Positions 24,796-48,824 of a DNA stretch of 50,251 bases are shown here, piece after piece. The position numbers and the translations under genes were made by a program. The DNA lies in assembly GCA_017465465.1 (NCBI GenBank), contig JAFTWE010000030.1, positions 1-50,251 of the forward strand. Reading direction: 5' to 3'. The notes beneath the pieces were generated by a model. It was not told where the DNA came from. It did not search any database and saw only the letters and a list, made by a program, of their open reading frames with translations. How positions within the stretch are numbered: position 1 is the stretch's first letter; every line of letters begins with the position of its first letter. Source of the DNA: Clostridia bacterium (lineage in GTDB: Bacteria; Bacillota; Clostridia; Oscillospirales; Acutalibacteraceae).

Positions 24796-25557
24796 TTGAT
24801 TGATTTACATTCACACATTTTGCACGAAATGGACGATGGTGCCAAAAGCTTGCAGGAGGCGGTGCGCCTTTGCGCTTTGGGCAGAATAAATCATATCAAA
24901 AAAATTGTAGCAACTCCTCATTTCAATGCACTGGGTGACATTGATAATTTTATTAGTCAAAGAGATGAAAAAGCATCACTTTTAAAAAGTGAGATTGAAA
25001 AGAACAATATACAGACCCAGCTTTATACAGGTGCAGAGGTCTTTGTGGATGATGATATTTTCTTTTCAAACAACCTTAAACGCCTTACAATCAATAATTC
25101 CAAATATCTTTTGGTGGAATTCAGCTTTTACGGACTCAGAATAAAGCACGTTTCTGATTATCTTAATGAGCTGTTTTCTATGGGTGTTGTTCCTATAATT
25201 GCTCACCCTGAAAGATATGAATTCTTTCAGAGTGATTATGATGCAATCAATGAATTTGCTTCACGGGGTGTCCTGTTTCAGTTGAATGCAGGAAGCCTTG
25301 CAAGCCGTGACGGCAGGGAAGAATTTGAGCTTGCCTATGAAATGGCGTTTAAGGGTGTGGCATCATTCATAGCAACCGATGCGCATTCACTTGCTCACAG
25401 ACCAAATGATATTGGTGAAATGCTAAGACAATTCCCTCAGGATATTAACCCTGAGCTTATGAATAAAATGTTAGTCACTAATCCTCAGATAGTTTTAAAT
25501 GATGATGATATGCCGAGAATTCGGTACCGTCGTATTGAAAAACGCAGGTTTTATTGA
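24796..25557 (+). CDS. CpsB/YwqE-type tyrosine-protein phosphatase (PHP fold)
   Basis: This 253-residue metal-dependent phosphatase dephosphorylates BY-kinases such as the one encoded next. The PHP metal ligands are visible: H5 and H7 in DLHSH, H42 in ATPHFN, E81, H137 in IAHPERY, D195 and H197 in TDAHS. The start is a TTG at 24796, with GGGGGC upstream. It follows the GH105-like gene by 13 bp and precedes the kinase by 28 bp. The pair controls chain length and export in encapsulated Firmicutes, here presumably for the EpsG-type polymer. Confidence 0.93.
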   Translation: MIDLHSHILHEMDDGAKSLQEAVRLCALGRINHIKKIVATPHFNALGDIDNFISQRDEKASLLKSEIEKNNIQTQLYTGAEVFVDDDIFFSNNLKRLTINNSKYLLVEFSFYGLRIKHVSDYLNELFSMGVVPIIAHPERYEFFQSDYDAINEFASRGVLFQLNAGSLASRDGREEFELAYEMAFKGVASFIATDAHSLAHRPNDIGEMLRQFPQDINPELMNKMLVTNPQIVLNDDDMPRIRYRRIEKRRFY

Positions 25558-25585
25558 CAACAAATGTTAACAGGAGTGAAGTTAA

Positions 25586-27313
25586 ATGAATCAGGAAAGA
25601 TTTGACCAGACACCTCATAATATTTATGATGACGGTTCTTCAATAGATATTATAAAGCTGTTTAAAAGCATAATCAGCAAGCTGTGGATTATTCTGCTCG
25701 TTGGTGTTGTCGGTGCGGCCGCAGGCTATATTATTTCGGAGTCAACTTACATAAGGCAGTATTCTGCATCAACCACCCTTGCATTTATGCAGACTCAGTA
25801 TGTAAGAGTTACCGACTATTCCGAAACAGGTGAAGCTGATACTTATGTTCAGGAGCATACGACATTCTATACACAGGATGTAGTTAACCGTTATCAGCGT
25901 TTGCTTACAAGTGATTCGATGGTTTCTAAAATTAAAACAGCACTTGACGCACAAGGATTGTCCACTGTTTATTCGGAAGGCTTTATCAGAAATTCTCTGT
26001 CTATTACCGGTGTTGACGGCTTGGCAGGCTTCTTTGTTATCAGCGTGTCAAGTACGGACAGCGGATATTGCGAGCGTGCGCTGAAAATCGTTATGGACGA
26101 GTTTGAAAGCTATATCAACGGCTTTGATAATACTATAAGCATCAGCGTAATCAATGAGCCTACTTCTCCAGGTGTAAGCAATGACTCAGGCTCAATAGCA
26201 AATGCAATGTACGGCTTTATTATCGGAGCTGCTCTTGTTGTTTTGATTATCTTCTTTACTGTTATTGTTTCTGATACCGTTCAGAATATGGATAACCTCA
26301 AGGCTATCACAGGAGCAAAGGTTCTCGGCGCAATCCCTGTTATTGAAAAGCCGAACGGCTTATTTATGAAGAAAAAGGTTCCCTCGGGCTCATTGCTTAT
26401 AACGGACGAGCAAAAAGTTTCGTTCTCATTTGTCGAAAGCTTCAAGGCTATCAGAACAAAGCTTGAAAATGTATATACCGATAAGGGTCACAAGTGCTTT
26501 GTTGTTACCAGTACTTATGAGGACGAAGGTAAAACAACCACATCCGTTAATATTGCTGTTGCCCTTGCTCAGAAGGGTAAGTCTGTTCTTCTTATGGACT
26601 GTGACTTCAGAAAGCCTGCTGTTCTTCGTGCGGTTGGTGTTAAGAGTGATACACGTTACGGTCTTATCCCCATTATCAAAGGCACTTCTACCTATGTGGA
26701 TTCAATTAAGTTTATTAAATCTCTCGGTATTTTCGTGTTACCCACAGGCGGTGTTTCTCTTAAATCTACCGAAGTTCTTGACGCTGAAAAAGTGCGCAAT
26801 GTAATCGACCAGGCAAGAAAAGAGTTCGATTATATCATTATTGACTCTCCTCCTACCCATGTTGTTACTGACAGTTTGGTTATTGCTCCTCTTGCAGACG
26901 GTATTATTTACTGCGTAAGAAATGACTACGCCAAGGCAAGTGAAATTACAAGGACTGTTGATGAAATCCGCGGTGCAGGTATTGAAATTATCGGTACAAT
27001 TCTCACAATGAGCACAGGTGAGGAAAATAACCGCTATTACAAAAAGAAAGGCTATTACCGCAGAAGAGGCGGACGCTACGGCCGTTACGGTTACGGCAAG
27101 AAGAAAGGCTCTTACGGAGCTTACGGTGATTATGGCGGATATGGCGGCTACGGCGGTTACGGCGGCTACGGTTACTCAAGCGGCTACGGATACGGAAGTA
27201 GCTACGGCGGCTATGATAACAGCTACGGCGGCTACAGCGGATATGGCGGCTCAGGCGGTTACGGCAGCTACGGCAAAGGTAACGACAGCCAGGATAACCA
27301 AAAAAGAAGTTAA
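25586..27313 (+). CDS. Wzz-BY-kinase fusion with Gly/Tyr-rich tail
   Basis: This 575-residue protein fuses a Wzz-type chain-length domain to a bacterial tyrosine kinase. Membrane helices lie at about 32-52 and 208-230, flanking the external domain. The kinase has Walker A (STYEDEGKTTTS, about 309-320), Walker A' (VLLMDCDFRKP) and Walker B (YIIIDSPP). The tail (about 484-575) begins YYKKKGYYRRR and continues as GGYG-type repeats with about 24 tyrosines, far more than the usual cluster of 4-8 autophosphorylated tyrosines. It is encoded by repetitive GGC/TAC-rich DNA. In most Firmicutes the two domains are separate CpsC and CpsD proteins. CpsB-like phosphatase is the partner just upstream. The ribosome binding site is AGGAG. 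Confidence 0.93.
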   Translation: MNQERFDQTPHNIYDDGSSIDIIKLFKSIISKLWIILLVGVVGAAAGYIISESTYIRQYSASTTLAFMQTQYVRVTDYSETGEADTYVQEHTTFYTQDVVNRYQRLLTSDSMVSKIKTALDAQGLSTVYSEGFIRNSLSITGVDGLAGFFVISVSSTDSGYCERALKIVMDEFESYINGFDNTISISVINEPTSPGVSNDSGSIANAMYGFIIGAALVVLIIFFTVIVSDTVQNMDNLKAITGAKVLGAIPVIEKPNGLFMKKKVPSGSLLITDEQKVSFSFVESFKAIRTKLENVYTDKGHKCFVVTSTYEDEGKTTTSVNIAVALAQKGKSVLLMDCDFRKPAVLRAVGVKSDTRYGLIPIIKGTSTYVDSIKFIKSLGIFVLPTGGVSLKSTEVLDAEKVRNVIDQARKEFDYIIIDSPPTHVVTDSLVIAPLADGIIYCVRNDYAKASEITRTVDEIRGAGIEIIGTILTMSTGEENNRYYKKKGYYRRRGGRYGRYGYGKKKGSYGAYGDYGGYGGYGGYGGYGYSSGYGYGSSYGGYDNSYGGYSGYGGSGGYGSYGKGNDSQDNQKRS

Positions 27314-27340
27314 ATAATCAAAGTGAAAGAAGTGACCATT

Positions 27341-28474
27341 GTGTCAGAAAGAATTTTTCTTTCTCCGCCCCACATGAACGGCAGAGAAATCAATTTCATA
27401 AATGAAGCATTTGATACAAATTGGATTGCACCTTTTGGCCCTAATCTTACAGGCTTTGAAAACGATATGAGCAAATATCTTGGAATCAATAAATCTCTTG
27501 CTCTTTCTTCAGGCACTGCTGCAATGCACCTTGCGTTAATGTATGTAGGAGTGCAAAAGGACGATGTCGTATTTTGTTCAGACCTTACTTTTGCAGGTAG
27601 TTGTAATCCTGCTGTTTATATCGGTGCTAAGCTTGTGTTTATTGATTCAGATTATGAAACCTTCAATATGAGTCCGGTTGCTTTGGAGAAGGCGTTTGAA
27701 AAATACGAAAAACTCGGCAAGCTTCCCAAGGCTGTTATTATTGTTGACCTTTACGGTAACCCGGCTAATTTTGATGAACTTCTCCCAATTTGTGAAAGCT
27801 ACGGCGTTACTGTTATTGAAGATGCTGCTGAAGCTCTGGGTGCTGAATATAAAGGTAAAAAGTGCGGAACTTTCGGAAAAATCAATATTCTGTCATTTAA
27901 CGGAAATAAAGTTATCACTACTTCCGGTGGAGGAATGGCTTGTTCGGAAGATACACAGGCCATAGAAAAAATGCATTTTTGGGCTAACCAGTCAAAGGAA
28001 CCTGTTAATTATTACCTTCACAAAGAGGTTGGGTATAATTACCGAATGTCTAATATAAGCGCAGGAATTGGTAGGGGGCAGATGCTGACACTTGATGAAA
28101 GAGTTAGTCAGCGCAGGTTCGTCAATGAGTACTATAAAAAAGAACTTGGTGATTTACCGATTAAGTTTTCACCGGAAACGGTTGGCGCTGTTTCAAGTTG
28201 TTGGCTTTCTGTTATTACGATTGATGAAGGAATCAGTGTTTCTCCGGATGATGTTATTGAGGCACTTGAAAAAGAGAACATTGAATCTCGCCGTGTTTGG
28301 AATCCTATGCACTGTCACCCTGTCTTTGCTGATTGCGACTATATCAACAGCGGTGAGATTGATGTTGGCATCGATGTATTCAACAGGGGAGTATGTTTGC
28401 CGTCGGGTTCGAGCTTAAGTGAAGAAGAGCTTCAACATATAGTTAAGGTTGTAAGAGCTGTTTTTGGCAAATAA
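27341..28474 (+). CDS. DegT/DnrJ/EryC1-family PLP aminotransferase (PglE-like)
   Basis: This 377-residue sugar aminotransferase should convert the 4-keto sugar from the FlaA1-type dehydratase to a 4-amino sugar. It opens SERIFLSPPHMNG, followed by the usual AFDTNWIAPFGP. The PLP-linked lysine is K190 in SFNGNK. PLP phosphate-binding contacts lie near LSSGTAAMHLAL, with IEDAAEALGA holding the cofactor-facing Asp. The likely start is a GTG at 27341 preceded by AAAGAAGTGA; an upstream GTG at 27323 would add six residues. Last gene of the operon. A PglD-like acetyltransferase is not visible in the cluster. Confidence 0.92.
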   Translation: MSERIFLSPPHMNGREINFINEAFDTNWIAPFGPNLTGFENDMSKYLGINKSLALSSGTAAMHLALMYVGVQKDDVVFCSDLTFAGSCNPAVYIGAKLVFIDSDYETFNMSPVALEKAFEKYEKLGKLPKAVIIVDLYGNPANFDELLPICESYGVTVIEDAAEALGAEYKGKKCGTFGKINILSFNGNKVITTSGGGMACSEDTQAIEKMHFWANQSKEPVNYYLHKEVGYNYRMSNISAGIGRGQMLTLDERVSQRRFVNEYYKKELGDLPIKFSPETVGAVSSCWLSVITIDEGISVSPDDVIEALEKENIESRRVWNPMHCHPVFADCDYINSGEIDVGIDVFNRGVCLPSGSSLSEEELQHIVKVVRAVFGK

Positions 28475-28594: not shown

Positions 28595-28623
28595 TTGACA
28601 TACTAAGCGTACTGTGGTATTAT
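28595..28623 (+). promoter_or_regulatory. Promoter of the S10-spc-alpha operon
   Basis: TTGACA (28595-28600), a 17-bp spacer and TATTAT (28618-28623), with A-tracts upstream. It is the only strong promoter before some thirty co-directional genes. Transcription should start near 28630. Confidence 0.82.
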
Positions 28624-28633
28624 TCTACAGTAC
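28609..28633. promoter_or_regulatory. Dyad centred on the -10 element of the ribosomal promoter
   Basis: GTACTGT (28609-28615) and ACAGTAC (28627-28633) are perfect inverted repeats centred on the -10 hexamer (centre 28621). The left arm is upstream of the expected start, so this is a DNA-level symmetry, and could be an operator. A palindrome over the -10 of the main ribosomal promoter is not something I can explain. Confidence 0.45.
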
Positions 28634-28927
28634 ACTATATTATTATGTAGTATGGTGTGTAGATATGCGTTGATGTGGGATGTGGCAACTCGTAGAAGTT
28701 GGGAACTCTCGCGGAGTATGTCCGATTTTAAACCGGGCGCAAGAATAACGAGCACACAGAAGTTCGCTTCCCTTAGCGGACTAACTATGTGTGTAAGTGC
28801 GTTTTGAACGATGCACACTACCCGGAACTAACCCATTCCGGTTTTTAAATGTGAAGGGTGGAAACACCCGGAATAGTTGAGAAAATGTTCAAAACGAATG
28901 CCCGCCAAATTTTAAGGAGGCAGAATC
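28630..28927 (+). ncRNA. Structured leader of the S10 operon
   Basis: About 290 nt of untranslated leader lie between the promoter and rpsJ. It contains a 5' stem-loop (28631-28659, 8 bp with two U-G pairs), a long hairpin at 28753-28793 with an inner 8-bp stem and CACACA/TGTGTG base, and a 3' domain. In that domain a perfect 10-bp helix pairs 28800-28809 with 28887-28896 and encloses two hairpins: CCGGAA/TTCCGG (28822-28841) followed by TTTTT, which resembles an attenuator, and GGGTG-GAAA-CACCC (28856-28869), a GNRA-capped stem. A second CCGGAA (28868-28873) could compete for TTCCGG. Autogenous control by a ribosomal protein is the natural explanation. Confidence 0.6.
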
Positions 28928-29239
28928 ATGGCAGTTAAGGGGAAGATTAGAATCAGACTCAAGGGCTATGACCACAGCCTTGTCGACAAGGCAGCAGAAA
29001 AGATTGTTGAAACTGCAAAGCGCACAAACGCTCAGGTTTCAGGTCCAGTTCCGCTCCCCACCGAGAAGGAAGTAGTTACAGTTCTTCGCGCAGTTCATAA
29101 GTACAAGGATTCTCGTGAACAGTTTGAACAGCGCACACACAAAAGGCTTATCGACATTATCAGACCGTCAGCTAAGACCGTTGACGCTTTGAAAGGTCTT
29201 GAGCTTCCCGCAGGCGTAGAAATCGAAATCAAACTCTGA
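28928..29239 (+). CDS. rpsJ: 30S ribosomal protein S10
   Basis: This 103-residue protein of the 30S head also binds NusB/NusG in antitermination complexes. It carries the family signature [10 protein letters not shown] and [16 protein letters not shown], and ends in the usual [23 protein letters not shown] lies 8-10 bases before the ATG at 28928. First gene of the long operon; the leader upstream is structured. Confidence 0.98.
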
Positions 29240-48735: not shown

Positions 48736-48824
48736 GGAGACGTATCGAAGTGGTCATAACGGGGCTGACTCGAAATCAGTTAGGGAGCAATCCCCCGCGA
48801 GTTCGAATCTCGCCGTCTCCGCCA
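48736..48824 (+). tRNA. tRNA-Ser (anticodon CGA), with encoded CCA
   Basis: The acceptor stem GGAGACG/CGTCTCC (48736-48742 with 48814-48820), a G discriminator and a CCA at 48822-48824 are encoded. The anticodon stem-loop GCTGA-CTCGAAA-TCAGT gives anticodon CGA. A long variable arm follows (AGGGAGCAATCCCCC region), as in class II tRNA-Ser, then the T-loop GTTCGAATC. It is preceded by a truncated copy and followed by a strong terminator. Confidence 0.93.

What the first reader, a model, noticed from the sequence alone, without database searches (positions are those of the whole stretch)
28630..28927. Long structured leader before rpsJ: a candidate undescribed ribosomal-protein regulatory RNA
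The S10 operon begins with almost 300 nt of non-coding RNA. Its last part is enclosed by a perfect 10-bp helix (28800-28809 with 28887-28896) containing a terminator-like hairpin CCGGAA/TTCCGG plus U5 (28822-28846) and a GAAA-capped hairpin (28856-28869). A second CCGGAA (28868-28873) could compete for TTCCGG. A large upstream hairpin (28753-28793) and a 5' stem-loop complete a multi-domain RNA. This is more elaborate than a leader needs to be and fits attenuation by a ribosomal protein, perhaps L4 as in E. coli, although the sequence is unlike the E. coli S10 leader as I know it.
Basis: partly seen in the sequence, partly recalled or inferred. Interest (0 to 1): 0.75.

Follow-up and report, generated by a model that had tools for sequence, protein, structure and literature searches.

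The report
Two-part S10 operon leader RNA switch

Summary
The leader is not an undescribed kind. Its 5' domain (28665-28740) is the S10-Clostridia ribosomal-protein leader (RF03136): a covariance model built without the genus's loci finds it at E=4e-20, once in the genome, and two same-genus orthologues reach Rfam's cut-off (the window's copy does not). The 10-bp helix shows compensatory changes in the genus. The 81-nt Rfam model does not cover a 3' domain: a hairpin, a 22-nt spacer, an ACACCCGG element, and a closing helix. In a class-wide sample, 48 of 62 matches to a strict module pattern lie just downstream of a core. In nine Bacilli loci ACACCCGG sits inside the core instead. Downstream, a segment complementary to the core's 3' strand (helix R) can, in the window's family, alternatively pair with the Shine-Dalgarno. 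I infer a translational switch: a ribosomal protein on the core would release this segment to mask the ribosome-binding site. Attenuation at 28822-28846 remains possible but is less well supported as the general output. The GAAA-capped hairpin and second CCGGAA are genus-level or not conserved. The ligand is untested.

The parts
28595..28623 (+). predicted sigma-70-type promoter TTGACA-17-TATTAT
   Evidence: 11 of 12 consensus positions; a TTG-type -35 lies at the same place in genus relatives by eye
28631..28659 (+). 5' stem-loop P0
   Evidence: fold, mean z -2.72 in 14 genus leaders, weak in two
28665..28740 (+). core = S10-Clostridia (RF03136) ribosomal-protein leader domain
   Evidence: 80.8 bits, E 4.2e-20 with model R1 from 29 leaders outside the genus loci; only match at E 0.001 or better in genome G000; RF03136 19.4 bits (cut-off 35.1), E 0.1; 13 of 20 rpsJ loci at or above cut-off
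28675..28712 (+). core helix A (28675-28680 / 28707-28712) enclosing helix B (28686-28690 / 28697-28701)
   Evidence: 9 of the 11 pairs of A and B have changes on both sides in 29 leaders; pair check
28720..28738 (+). core helix C (28720-28724 / 28734-28738)
   Evidence: invariant in 29 of 29, so no covariation for or against; alignment
28753..28793 (+). large hairpin P2
   Evidence: hairpin kept with changed sequence in 14 genus leaders, mean z -3.83
28797..28816 (+). hairpin X, GUGCGU/AUGCAC, mutually exclusive with helix E
   Evidence: present in 16 of 16 genus leaders (GCGCAC in L007, ACGCAU in L015)
28800..28809 (+). helix E, 5' strand
   Evidence: compensatory changes, 156 of 160 cells paired
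28822..28841 (+). hairpin T (CCGGAA/UUCCGG), terminator-like
   Evidence: -6.9 kcal/mol
28842..28846 (+). U5 tract after hairpin T
   Evidence: at least 4 U of 5 in 61 of 64 family leaders (genus included), 28 of 40 class leaders
28842..28863 (+). 22-nt spacer of nearly fixed length between hairpin T and ACAC
28864..28879 (+). ACACCCGG element, four variable nt, GUUG (GUGU in many other Clostridia)
28887..28896 (+). helix E, 3' strand
28734..28739 (+). helix R, 5' strand CGGGCG (also the 3' strand of core helix C)
   Evidence: complement near the gene start in 63 family leaders, mean z 2.28; four control segments -0.49 to 0.68
28899..28904 (+). helix R, 3' strand UGCCCG
28900..28921 (+). predicted anti-Shine-Dalgarno hairpin GCCCGCC / GGAGGC
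   Evidence: fold; appears on its own when only the core is enforced; 44 of 69 family leaders hold both halves
28915..28920 (+). Shine-Dalgarno AGGAGG
   Evidence: sequence
28928..29239 (+). rpsJ (S10), first gene of the S10 operon
   Evidence: ORF; ribosomal-protein ORFs follow (gene names by recognition, no family search run)

Best explanation
The stretch 28630-28927 holds a divergent S10-Clostridia ribosomal-protein leader with an additional conserved 3' domain, and it is predicted to work as a translational switch in which a ribosomal protein, most likely L4, would bind the core and thereby free a segment that masks the Shine-Dalgarno. Shown by comparison: (1) the 5' core 28665-28740 is homologous to RF03136; (2) downstream lies a conserved unit of hairpin T, a 22-nt spacer and ACACCCGG, closed in this genus by helix E (28800-28809/28887-28896); (3) the core's 3' strand CGGGCG (28734-28739) has a complement at 28899-28904 that is kept, in varying register, in the family. 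Inferred: without the protein, helix R (28734-28739 with 28899-28904) forms, opens core helix C and leaves the ribosome-binding site open. With the protein, helix C is held, 28900-28906 is released and pairs with GGAGGC 28916-28921, and translation of the operon stops. In the nine Bacilli loci seen, no such 3' domain follows the core, the core lies directly before the Shine-Dalgarno and ACACCCGG sits inside it, so the same two parts could act by proximity. Hairpin T with its U5 may add transcription attenuation in this family. That the ligand is L4 rests on analogy with E. coli only.
For: Core membership: (39 of 39 rpsJ loci given to one search matched, E 1.7e-5 or better; the 40th source, E. 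coli rRNA, did not). 3' module: found by a loose pattern in 99 of the 109 non-Bacilli loci examined. A strict pattern ACRCMCGGNNNNGTGTRNNG has 62 matches in 196 class genomes (8 for the reversed control pattern, my count of the table), 48 of them 33-223 nt downstream of a core on the same strand; of the other 14, 13 are in genomes without a core row and 1 on another contig. Nearly fixed geometry: a stem ends 22 or 23 nt before ACAC in 39 and 43 of 64 family leaders (14 at 24, 0-6 elsewhere) and, at 21, 22 and 23 nt, in 27, 25 and 22 of 40 class leaders not used to find the rule (8 at 20, 12 at 24, 0-4 elsewhere). Helix E: compensatory changes. Helix R, against simple shuffles of the region: mean z 2.28, 33 of 63 family leaders at 5 of 100 shuffles or fewer; 1.53, 11 of 31 in the class sample; 1.03, 3 of 24 other named loci; four control segments -0.49 to 0.68. 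Extensions covary (ACC/GGU in L146, ACU/AGU in L147, ACA/UGU in L151). Energies of the two states are close: core plus masked site -94.1, R plus E plus T -95.9 kcal/mol, and the masked hairpin appears unasked when the core is enforced. GCCCGCC goes with GGAGGC: of leaders with a GGAGG, 44 of 45 with GCCCGCC against 13 of 20 without, not corrected for kinship.
Against: Core helix C never varies, so its competition with R cannot be proven by covariation. Helix R is weak in the 24 other named loci (3 at 5%), and one of its control segments, the nucleotides just 3' of the tested one, also reaches 5% in 14 of 63 family leaders (mean z 0.68). Fewer than half of the tested leaders outside the family are individually significant. 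The anti-Shine-Dalgarno hairpin is family-specific. Of the 136 class genomes with a core, only 49 have any match to the strict module pattern; the window itself does not match it (GUUG for GUGU), and 10 of 109 non-Bacilli loci fail even the loose pattern. Without constraints RNAfold does not choose the core: enforcing it costs 4 kcal/mol, and in the R state the unconstrained remainder pairs the Shine-Dalgarno region with other parts. No protein binding, RNA-seq or reporter data exist here. No significant primary-sequence resemblance to E. coli rRNA was established.
Confidence: 0.5

Rival explanations
1. Transcription attenuation: a ribosomal protein (L4) bound to the core stabilises a pause or termination at hairpin T and U5 (28822-28846), as in the E. 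coli S10 leader; helix R and the Shine-Dalgarno hairpin are secondary.
For: Hairpin plus U tract in 77 of 92 leaders against 18 expected from dinucleotide shuffles; at least 4 U of 5 in 61 of 64 family leaders; paired length changes of the T stem within the genus, 6 to 8 pairs. The E. coli mechanism is summarised in PMC10931766 (passages read).
Against: The stem is weak (-6.9 kcal/mol). Outside the family the U tract decays (28 of 40 with 4 U of 5; L151-L155 read UUUAAUUA or UUUAUUUA) while the spacing to ACACCCGG is kept, which termination does not require. No conserved antiterminator was found; the CCGGAA competitor is in 5 of 16 genus leaders.
Confidence: 0.3
2. The same switch, but the ligand is S10 itself (NusE), L2 or another protein of the operon, not L4.
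For: No test here separates the proteins; rpsJ is the first gene in the locus; PMC7247131 (passages read) lists a predicted L2 leader before rplB in Alphaproteobacteria.
Against: In the passages read, L4 is the S10-operon regulator with experiments behind it (PMC10931766), and PMC7247131 argues that an established regulator is the best guess for a new leader of the same genes.
Confidence: 0.2
3. A structured but unregulated 5' UTR that protects or stabilises the mRNA.
For: Long stable folds also protect mRNA (general knowledge); no functional data.
Against: Sequence-conserved stretches (ACACCCGG, GGAGUAUGUCCGA), nearly fixed spacing and mutually exclusive helices exceed what protection needs.
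Confidence: 0.08
4. A leader-peptide attenuator (51-codon open frame inside the leader).
For: An open frame of 51 aa starts in the 5' stem-loop in the window, L001 and L002.
Against: Frame, length and sequence are not kept in the genus (longest ATG frames 10 to 79 aa in different places in 14 leaders).
Confidence: 0.01

Closest known systems
S10-Clostridia ribosomal protein leader, RF03136 (Eckert and Weinberg 2020, PMC7247131; Firmicutes S10 leader credited there to Yao et al. 2007, not held)
   Same: Same place (5' UTR of rpsJ), same three helices and conserved nucleotides in 28665-28740.
   Different: The Rfam model is 81 nt and ends at the core. Hairpin T, the 22-nt spacer, ACACCCGG, helix E and helix R are outside it. 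The window's copy scores below the cut-off.
rpsJ motif RLC-47-1 of Peptostreptococcaceae (NAR 2024, PMC11109978; one section read, figure not held)
   Same: Leader of rpsJ in Clostridia, proposed as a ribosomal leader.
   Different: Reported from three genera of another family; its consensus figure could not be seen, so overlap with the 3' domain described here cannot be judged.
E. coli S10 leader (L4, NusA; PMC10931766, passages read)
   Same: Long structured leader of the same operon with an attenuator hairpin; L4 controls both transcription and translation there.
   Different: No Rfam family but RF03136 matched the leader at E up to 10; the E. coli leader was not aligned directly; no L4 data here.
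B. subtilis L10(L12)4 and L20 attenuators (PMC10931766, passages read)
   Same: Firmicutes ribosomal-protein feedback; for L10(L12)4 through mutually exclusive helices.
   Different: Other proteins and other RNAs; output there is termination, here predicted to be mainly translation.

Membership tests
S10-Clostridia leader (RF03136) | lies in the 5' UTR of rpsJ, first gene of the S10 operon | tested here: met
   core ends 187 nt before the rpsJ ATG
S10-Clostridia leader (RF03136) | nested helices A and B followed by hairpin C, with the conserved UGA, GGAG and AUGUC nucleotides | tested here: met
   model R1 matches over positions 1-75 of 75 with no non-standard pair marked; E 4.2e-20
S10-Clostridia leader (RF03136) | score at or above Rfam's gathering cut-off (35.1 bits; a search threshold, not an anatomical feature) | tested here: inconclusive
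   window 19.4 bits, below it; 13 of 20 rpsJ loci at or above it, among them 2 of 7 genus loci, L015 38.7 and L014 35.8; L016 31.3 and L009 26.3 below; L003 (the window), L004, L005 no match at E up to 1
S10-Clostridia leader (RF03136) | covariation in the helices | tested here: met
   95.9% of cells paired, 9 of 16 pairs changed on both sides, slid registers 33-51%; helix C invariant
E. coli-type S10 leader | sequence/structure match to a described leader of that type | tested here: inconclusive
   no Rfam family but RF03136 at E up to 10; whether Rfam holds an E. coli-type S10 leader was not checked
E. coli-type S10 leader | L4 binding and L4-dependent termination | not testable with these tools
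   needs protein and transcription assays
Intrinsic terminator / attenuator | GC-rich hairpin followed by U tract | tested here: met
   for the window and its family
Intrinsic terminator / attenuator | transcripts ending at the U tract, and a conserved antiterminator | tested here: inconclusive
   no RNA data; CCGGAA competitor not conserved
rpsJ motif RLC-47-1 | published consensus | not testable with these tools
   figure and supplements not held

The most novel reading that the evidence does not exclude
The S10 leader of Firmicutes is a two-part RNA: a core and an ACACCCGG element that evolution has moved. In Clostridia the element is hung 3' of the core on a hairpin at a nearly fixed 22-nt distance; in the Bacilli loci seen it sits inside the core's own hairpin (9 of 9, and in 0 of 100 Clostridia cores). 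In Clostridia a long-range helix between the core's 3' strand and the region before rpsJ couples protein binding to ribosome access. That would be a rearranged ribosomal-protein leader with two different couplings to translation.
Probability: 0.45. Interest if true: 0.65.

Novelty: new variant of a known kind. Interest (0 to 1): 0.5.

Why it matters
The S10 operon leader of Firmicutes has a published motif, but the passages read here give no mechanism and no tested ligand for it. The conserved 3' domain, its nearly fixed spacing and the core-to-Shine-Dalgarno coupling give specific, mutually exclusive helices that a reporter and a binding assay can test. If the ACACCCGG element is part of the protein site, its two placements offer a natural experiment on how an RNA binding site can be rearranged.

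Tried and rejected
1) Undescribed family: rejected for the core. 2) GAAA-capped hairpin and second CCGGAA as general regulatory elements: the first is kept in the genus only, the second not even there. 3) Antiterminator between the core's CCGGG and hairpin T's CCCGG: noticed, but T's 5' strand is CCCAGG in many Clostridia, so not general. 4) Module-local hairpin ACAC/GUGU: paired in 174 of 200 cells in other genera of the family but 32 of 64 in the genus; helix E uses the same strand in a number of lineages, so I do not rely on it. The class sample cannot test it because the search pattern required GTGT. 5) Covariation scan of the ungapped 3' domain in 99 leaders: four column pairs just above the null maximum, none building a helix. 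6) Helix E across 93 leaders by best-helix search against simple shuffles: 27 at 3 of 60 shuffles or fewer, mean z 1.16; supportive, not decisive. 7) rRNA mimicry: the Bacilli element has its best 23S place at 677 in 4 of 9 loci, but shuffles reach the 23S score in 20 to 200 of 200; in an ungapped test of the conserved segment 93 of 151 shuffles do. 16S scores were printed but not given their own shuffle count; L088 reached 14.5 there and was not followed. 109 cores score no better than shuffled (12.35 against 12.73). Negative, with E. coli rRNA only. 8) Leader peptide: not conserved. 9) In one search I used wrong coordinates for the outer core helix; corrected.

Rows dropped: near-identical loci were left out of the family and module counts (L001, L008, L013, L018, L020, L023, L099 in one script or another), as were loci without the module pattern (19 of 118: nine Bacilli and ten others, L024, L027, L047, L050, L051, L061, L087, L094, L111, L115) or without a core match by regular expression (31 of 40 class leaders used; 24 other named loci used). 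Of the 48 class leaders with core and module, 40 were fetched. The Bacilli sample is nine loci of three genera.

Full report
WHAT IS THERE. The window carries the S10 operon (rpsJ 28928-29239, then ribosomal-protein ORFs; gene names by recognition) behind an aminotransferase-like gene ending at 28474. A near-consensus promoter lies at 28595-28623, so the predicted leader is about 298 nt.

CORE = KNOWN LEADER. Rfam at its own cut-offs finds nothing in the leader. A permissive search of 401 bases gives one match, RF03136 S10-Clostridia, at 28662-28740, 19.4 bits against a cut-off of 35.1, E 0.1. In 20 rpsJ loci scanned the same way (the window's among them), 13 are at or above the cut-off, including L015 and L014 of the window's own genus. 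L016 and L009 are below it, and L003 (the window), L004 and L005 gave no match at E up to 1. I aligned 29 cores that are not among the genus loci (nine carry other genus labels; the genus label of the 20 named records was not checked). Their helices are 95.9% paired with 9 of 16 pairs changed on both sides, against 33-51% in slid registers; helix C is invariant and so gives no covariation. The model built from them finds the window at 28665-28740 with 80.8 bits, E 4.2e-20, and nothing else at E 0.001 or better in the 2.47-Mb genome. It also matched 39 of 39 further rpsJ loci of genus relatives, other Clostridia and Bacilli, and not E. coli rRNA. In 196 genomes of the class, 136 have the core (stricter filters, so a lower bound). 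The 'undescribed' reading therefore fails for the core: PMC7247131 (passages read) states that the S10 leader of Firmicutes was already established and reports numerous examples in Clostridia.

A 3' DOMAIN BEYOND THE RFAM MODEL. In 99 of 109 non-Bacilli loci examined, the core is followed, after a variable region, by an ACACCCGG-type element, usually GAA before it and four free nucleotides and GUGU after it. Before it lies hairpin T with a U tract: 77 of 92 leaders, 18 expected from shuffles. The end of the hairpin lies about 22 nt before ACAC: stems ending there number 39 (22 nt) and 43 (23 nt) of 64 family leaders, against 14 at 24 nt and 0-6 elsewhere. To test this on leaders not used to find it, I searched 196 class genomes for a strict module pattern: 62 matches in 61 genomes, 8 for the reversed pattern. 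Of the 62, 48 lie 33-223 nt downstream of a core in the same orientation; 13 are in genomes without a core row and 1 is on another contig. The strict pattern is met in 49 of the 136 genomes with a core, so it understates the module or the module is absent in some; the window itself fails it (GUUG for GUGU). I fetched 40 of the 48. The same spacing appears (27, 25 and 22 of 40 at 21, 22 and 23 nt; 8 at 20 and 12 at 24; 0-4 elsewhere), while the U tract is poorer (28 of 40 with at least 4 U of 5, against 61 of 64 in the family). A bare terminator would need the U tract and not the spacing, so hairpin T looks like part of a folded domain that may also terminate in this family.

HELICES IN THE GENUS. 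Its 5' strand can instead form hairpin X with AUGCAC-type partners, in 16 of 16. P2 and P0 are kept (mean z -3.83 and -2.72 in 14 leaders; P0 weak in two). The GAAA-capped hairpin is a genus feature (58 of 64 cells; 103 of 200 in other genera of the family with slid registers 64-96; 30 of 160 in the class sample).

A LONG-RANGE HELIX TO THE CORE. The minimum-energy fold of the free leader pairs the core's 3' strand with 28899-28903. I asked whether relatives keep a complement to CGGGCG plus three nucleotides between the module and the start codon, against simple shuffles of that region: mean z 2.28 in 63 family leaders, 33 of them at 5 of 100 shuffles or fewer; 1.53 in 31 class leaders, 11; 1.03 in 24 other named loci, 3. 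Four other core or neighbouring segments gave mean z -0.49 to 0.68; the highest, just 3' of the tested segment, reached 5% in 14 of 63 family leaders. Register and sequence vary (UGCCCG, CGCCC, UCGCCU, UGUUGUACG), and the extension covaries with the variable nucleotides after the core (ACC/GGU L146, ACU/AGU L147, ACA/UGU L151). This helix R excludes core helix C and, in the window's family, the hairpin GCCCGCC/GGAGGC that covers the Shine-Dalgarno. With the core enforced the Shine-Dalgarno hairpin forms unasked at -94.1 kcal/mol; with R, E and T enforced -95.9; free minimum -98.1. 44 of 69 family leaders hold both GCCCGCC and GGAGGC.

BACILLI. In nine of nine Bacilli loci (seven Paenibacillus, one Cohnella, one Halalkalibacter) ACACCCGG is inside the core hairpin, none follows the core, and the core ends a few nucleotides before the Shine-Dalgarno; in 0 of 100 Clostridia cores is ACACCCGG inside. 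This is the basis of the 'moved element' reading. That the two ACACCCGG stretches are the same element is inferred from an 8-nt identity and their complementary distribution in a narrow Bacilli sample.

MECHANISM. I commit to translational control by the core/R/Shine-Dalgarno exchange, with attenuation at T as a possible second output. L4 is chosen by analogy with E. coli, where it acts on both transcription and translation (PMC10931766, passages read). An attempt to identify the ligand from rRNA resemblance was negative.

LITERATURE. I found no description of the 3' domain in the held text: searches with 'S10-Clostridia' and 'ribosomal leader', 'S10 leader'/'rpsJ' combinations, S10 operon with L4 and B. 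subtilis, a pipeline/leader search, and rpsJ with C. difficile. Only passages or one section of a few of the listed papers were opened. Yao 2007 is not held, and the RLC-47-1 figure (PMC11109978) and all supplements are not readable, so prior description of the 3' domain cannot be excluded.

Noticed in passing
28826-28837 (loop of hairpin T and flanks): The loop segment ACUAACCCAU of hairpin T is invariant in 16 of 16 genus leaders while stem length varies from 6 to 8 pairs, and it was not seen in the module-bearing leaders of other genera listed. No explanation found; a protein or loop contact specific to this genus is possible.
   Followed up: partly
28714-28724: The core contains GGAG-U-AUG (GGAGUAUGUCC), an AUG one nucleotide after a Shine-Dalgarno-like GGAG, in most relatives; the frame after it is not kept and some leaders lack the AUG (L085, L092), so it looks like RNA conservation rather than a reading frame.
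   Followed up: partly
24796-28474: A PHP-type phosphatase, a chain-length/tyrosine-kinase-like protein with a long Gly-Tyr-rich tail and a DegT-like aminotransferase (names from general knowledge, no search run) sit directly upstream of the S10 operon.
   Followed up: no
L127-L132, L151-L155 (class sample): In many Clostridia the linker right after the core reads like ACAAGUCACUGUACA and the segment after the module like GUGUACAG..CUUGUUGUACG, which together would extend helix R into one long helix with few mismatches.
   Followed up: partly
L070, L072, L073, L078, L088-L091, L095: Bacilli leaders carry ACACACCCGGCYCCUUUGCCAUG-type sequence in the core hairpin; the CUCCUUUGCCA part resembles a boxA-type sequence (recalled), which might matter for NusB-S10.
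   Followed up: no
48736-48821: tRNA gene, the only Rfam match in the window at gathering thresholds.
   Followed up: no
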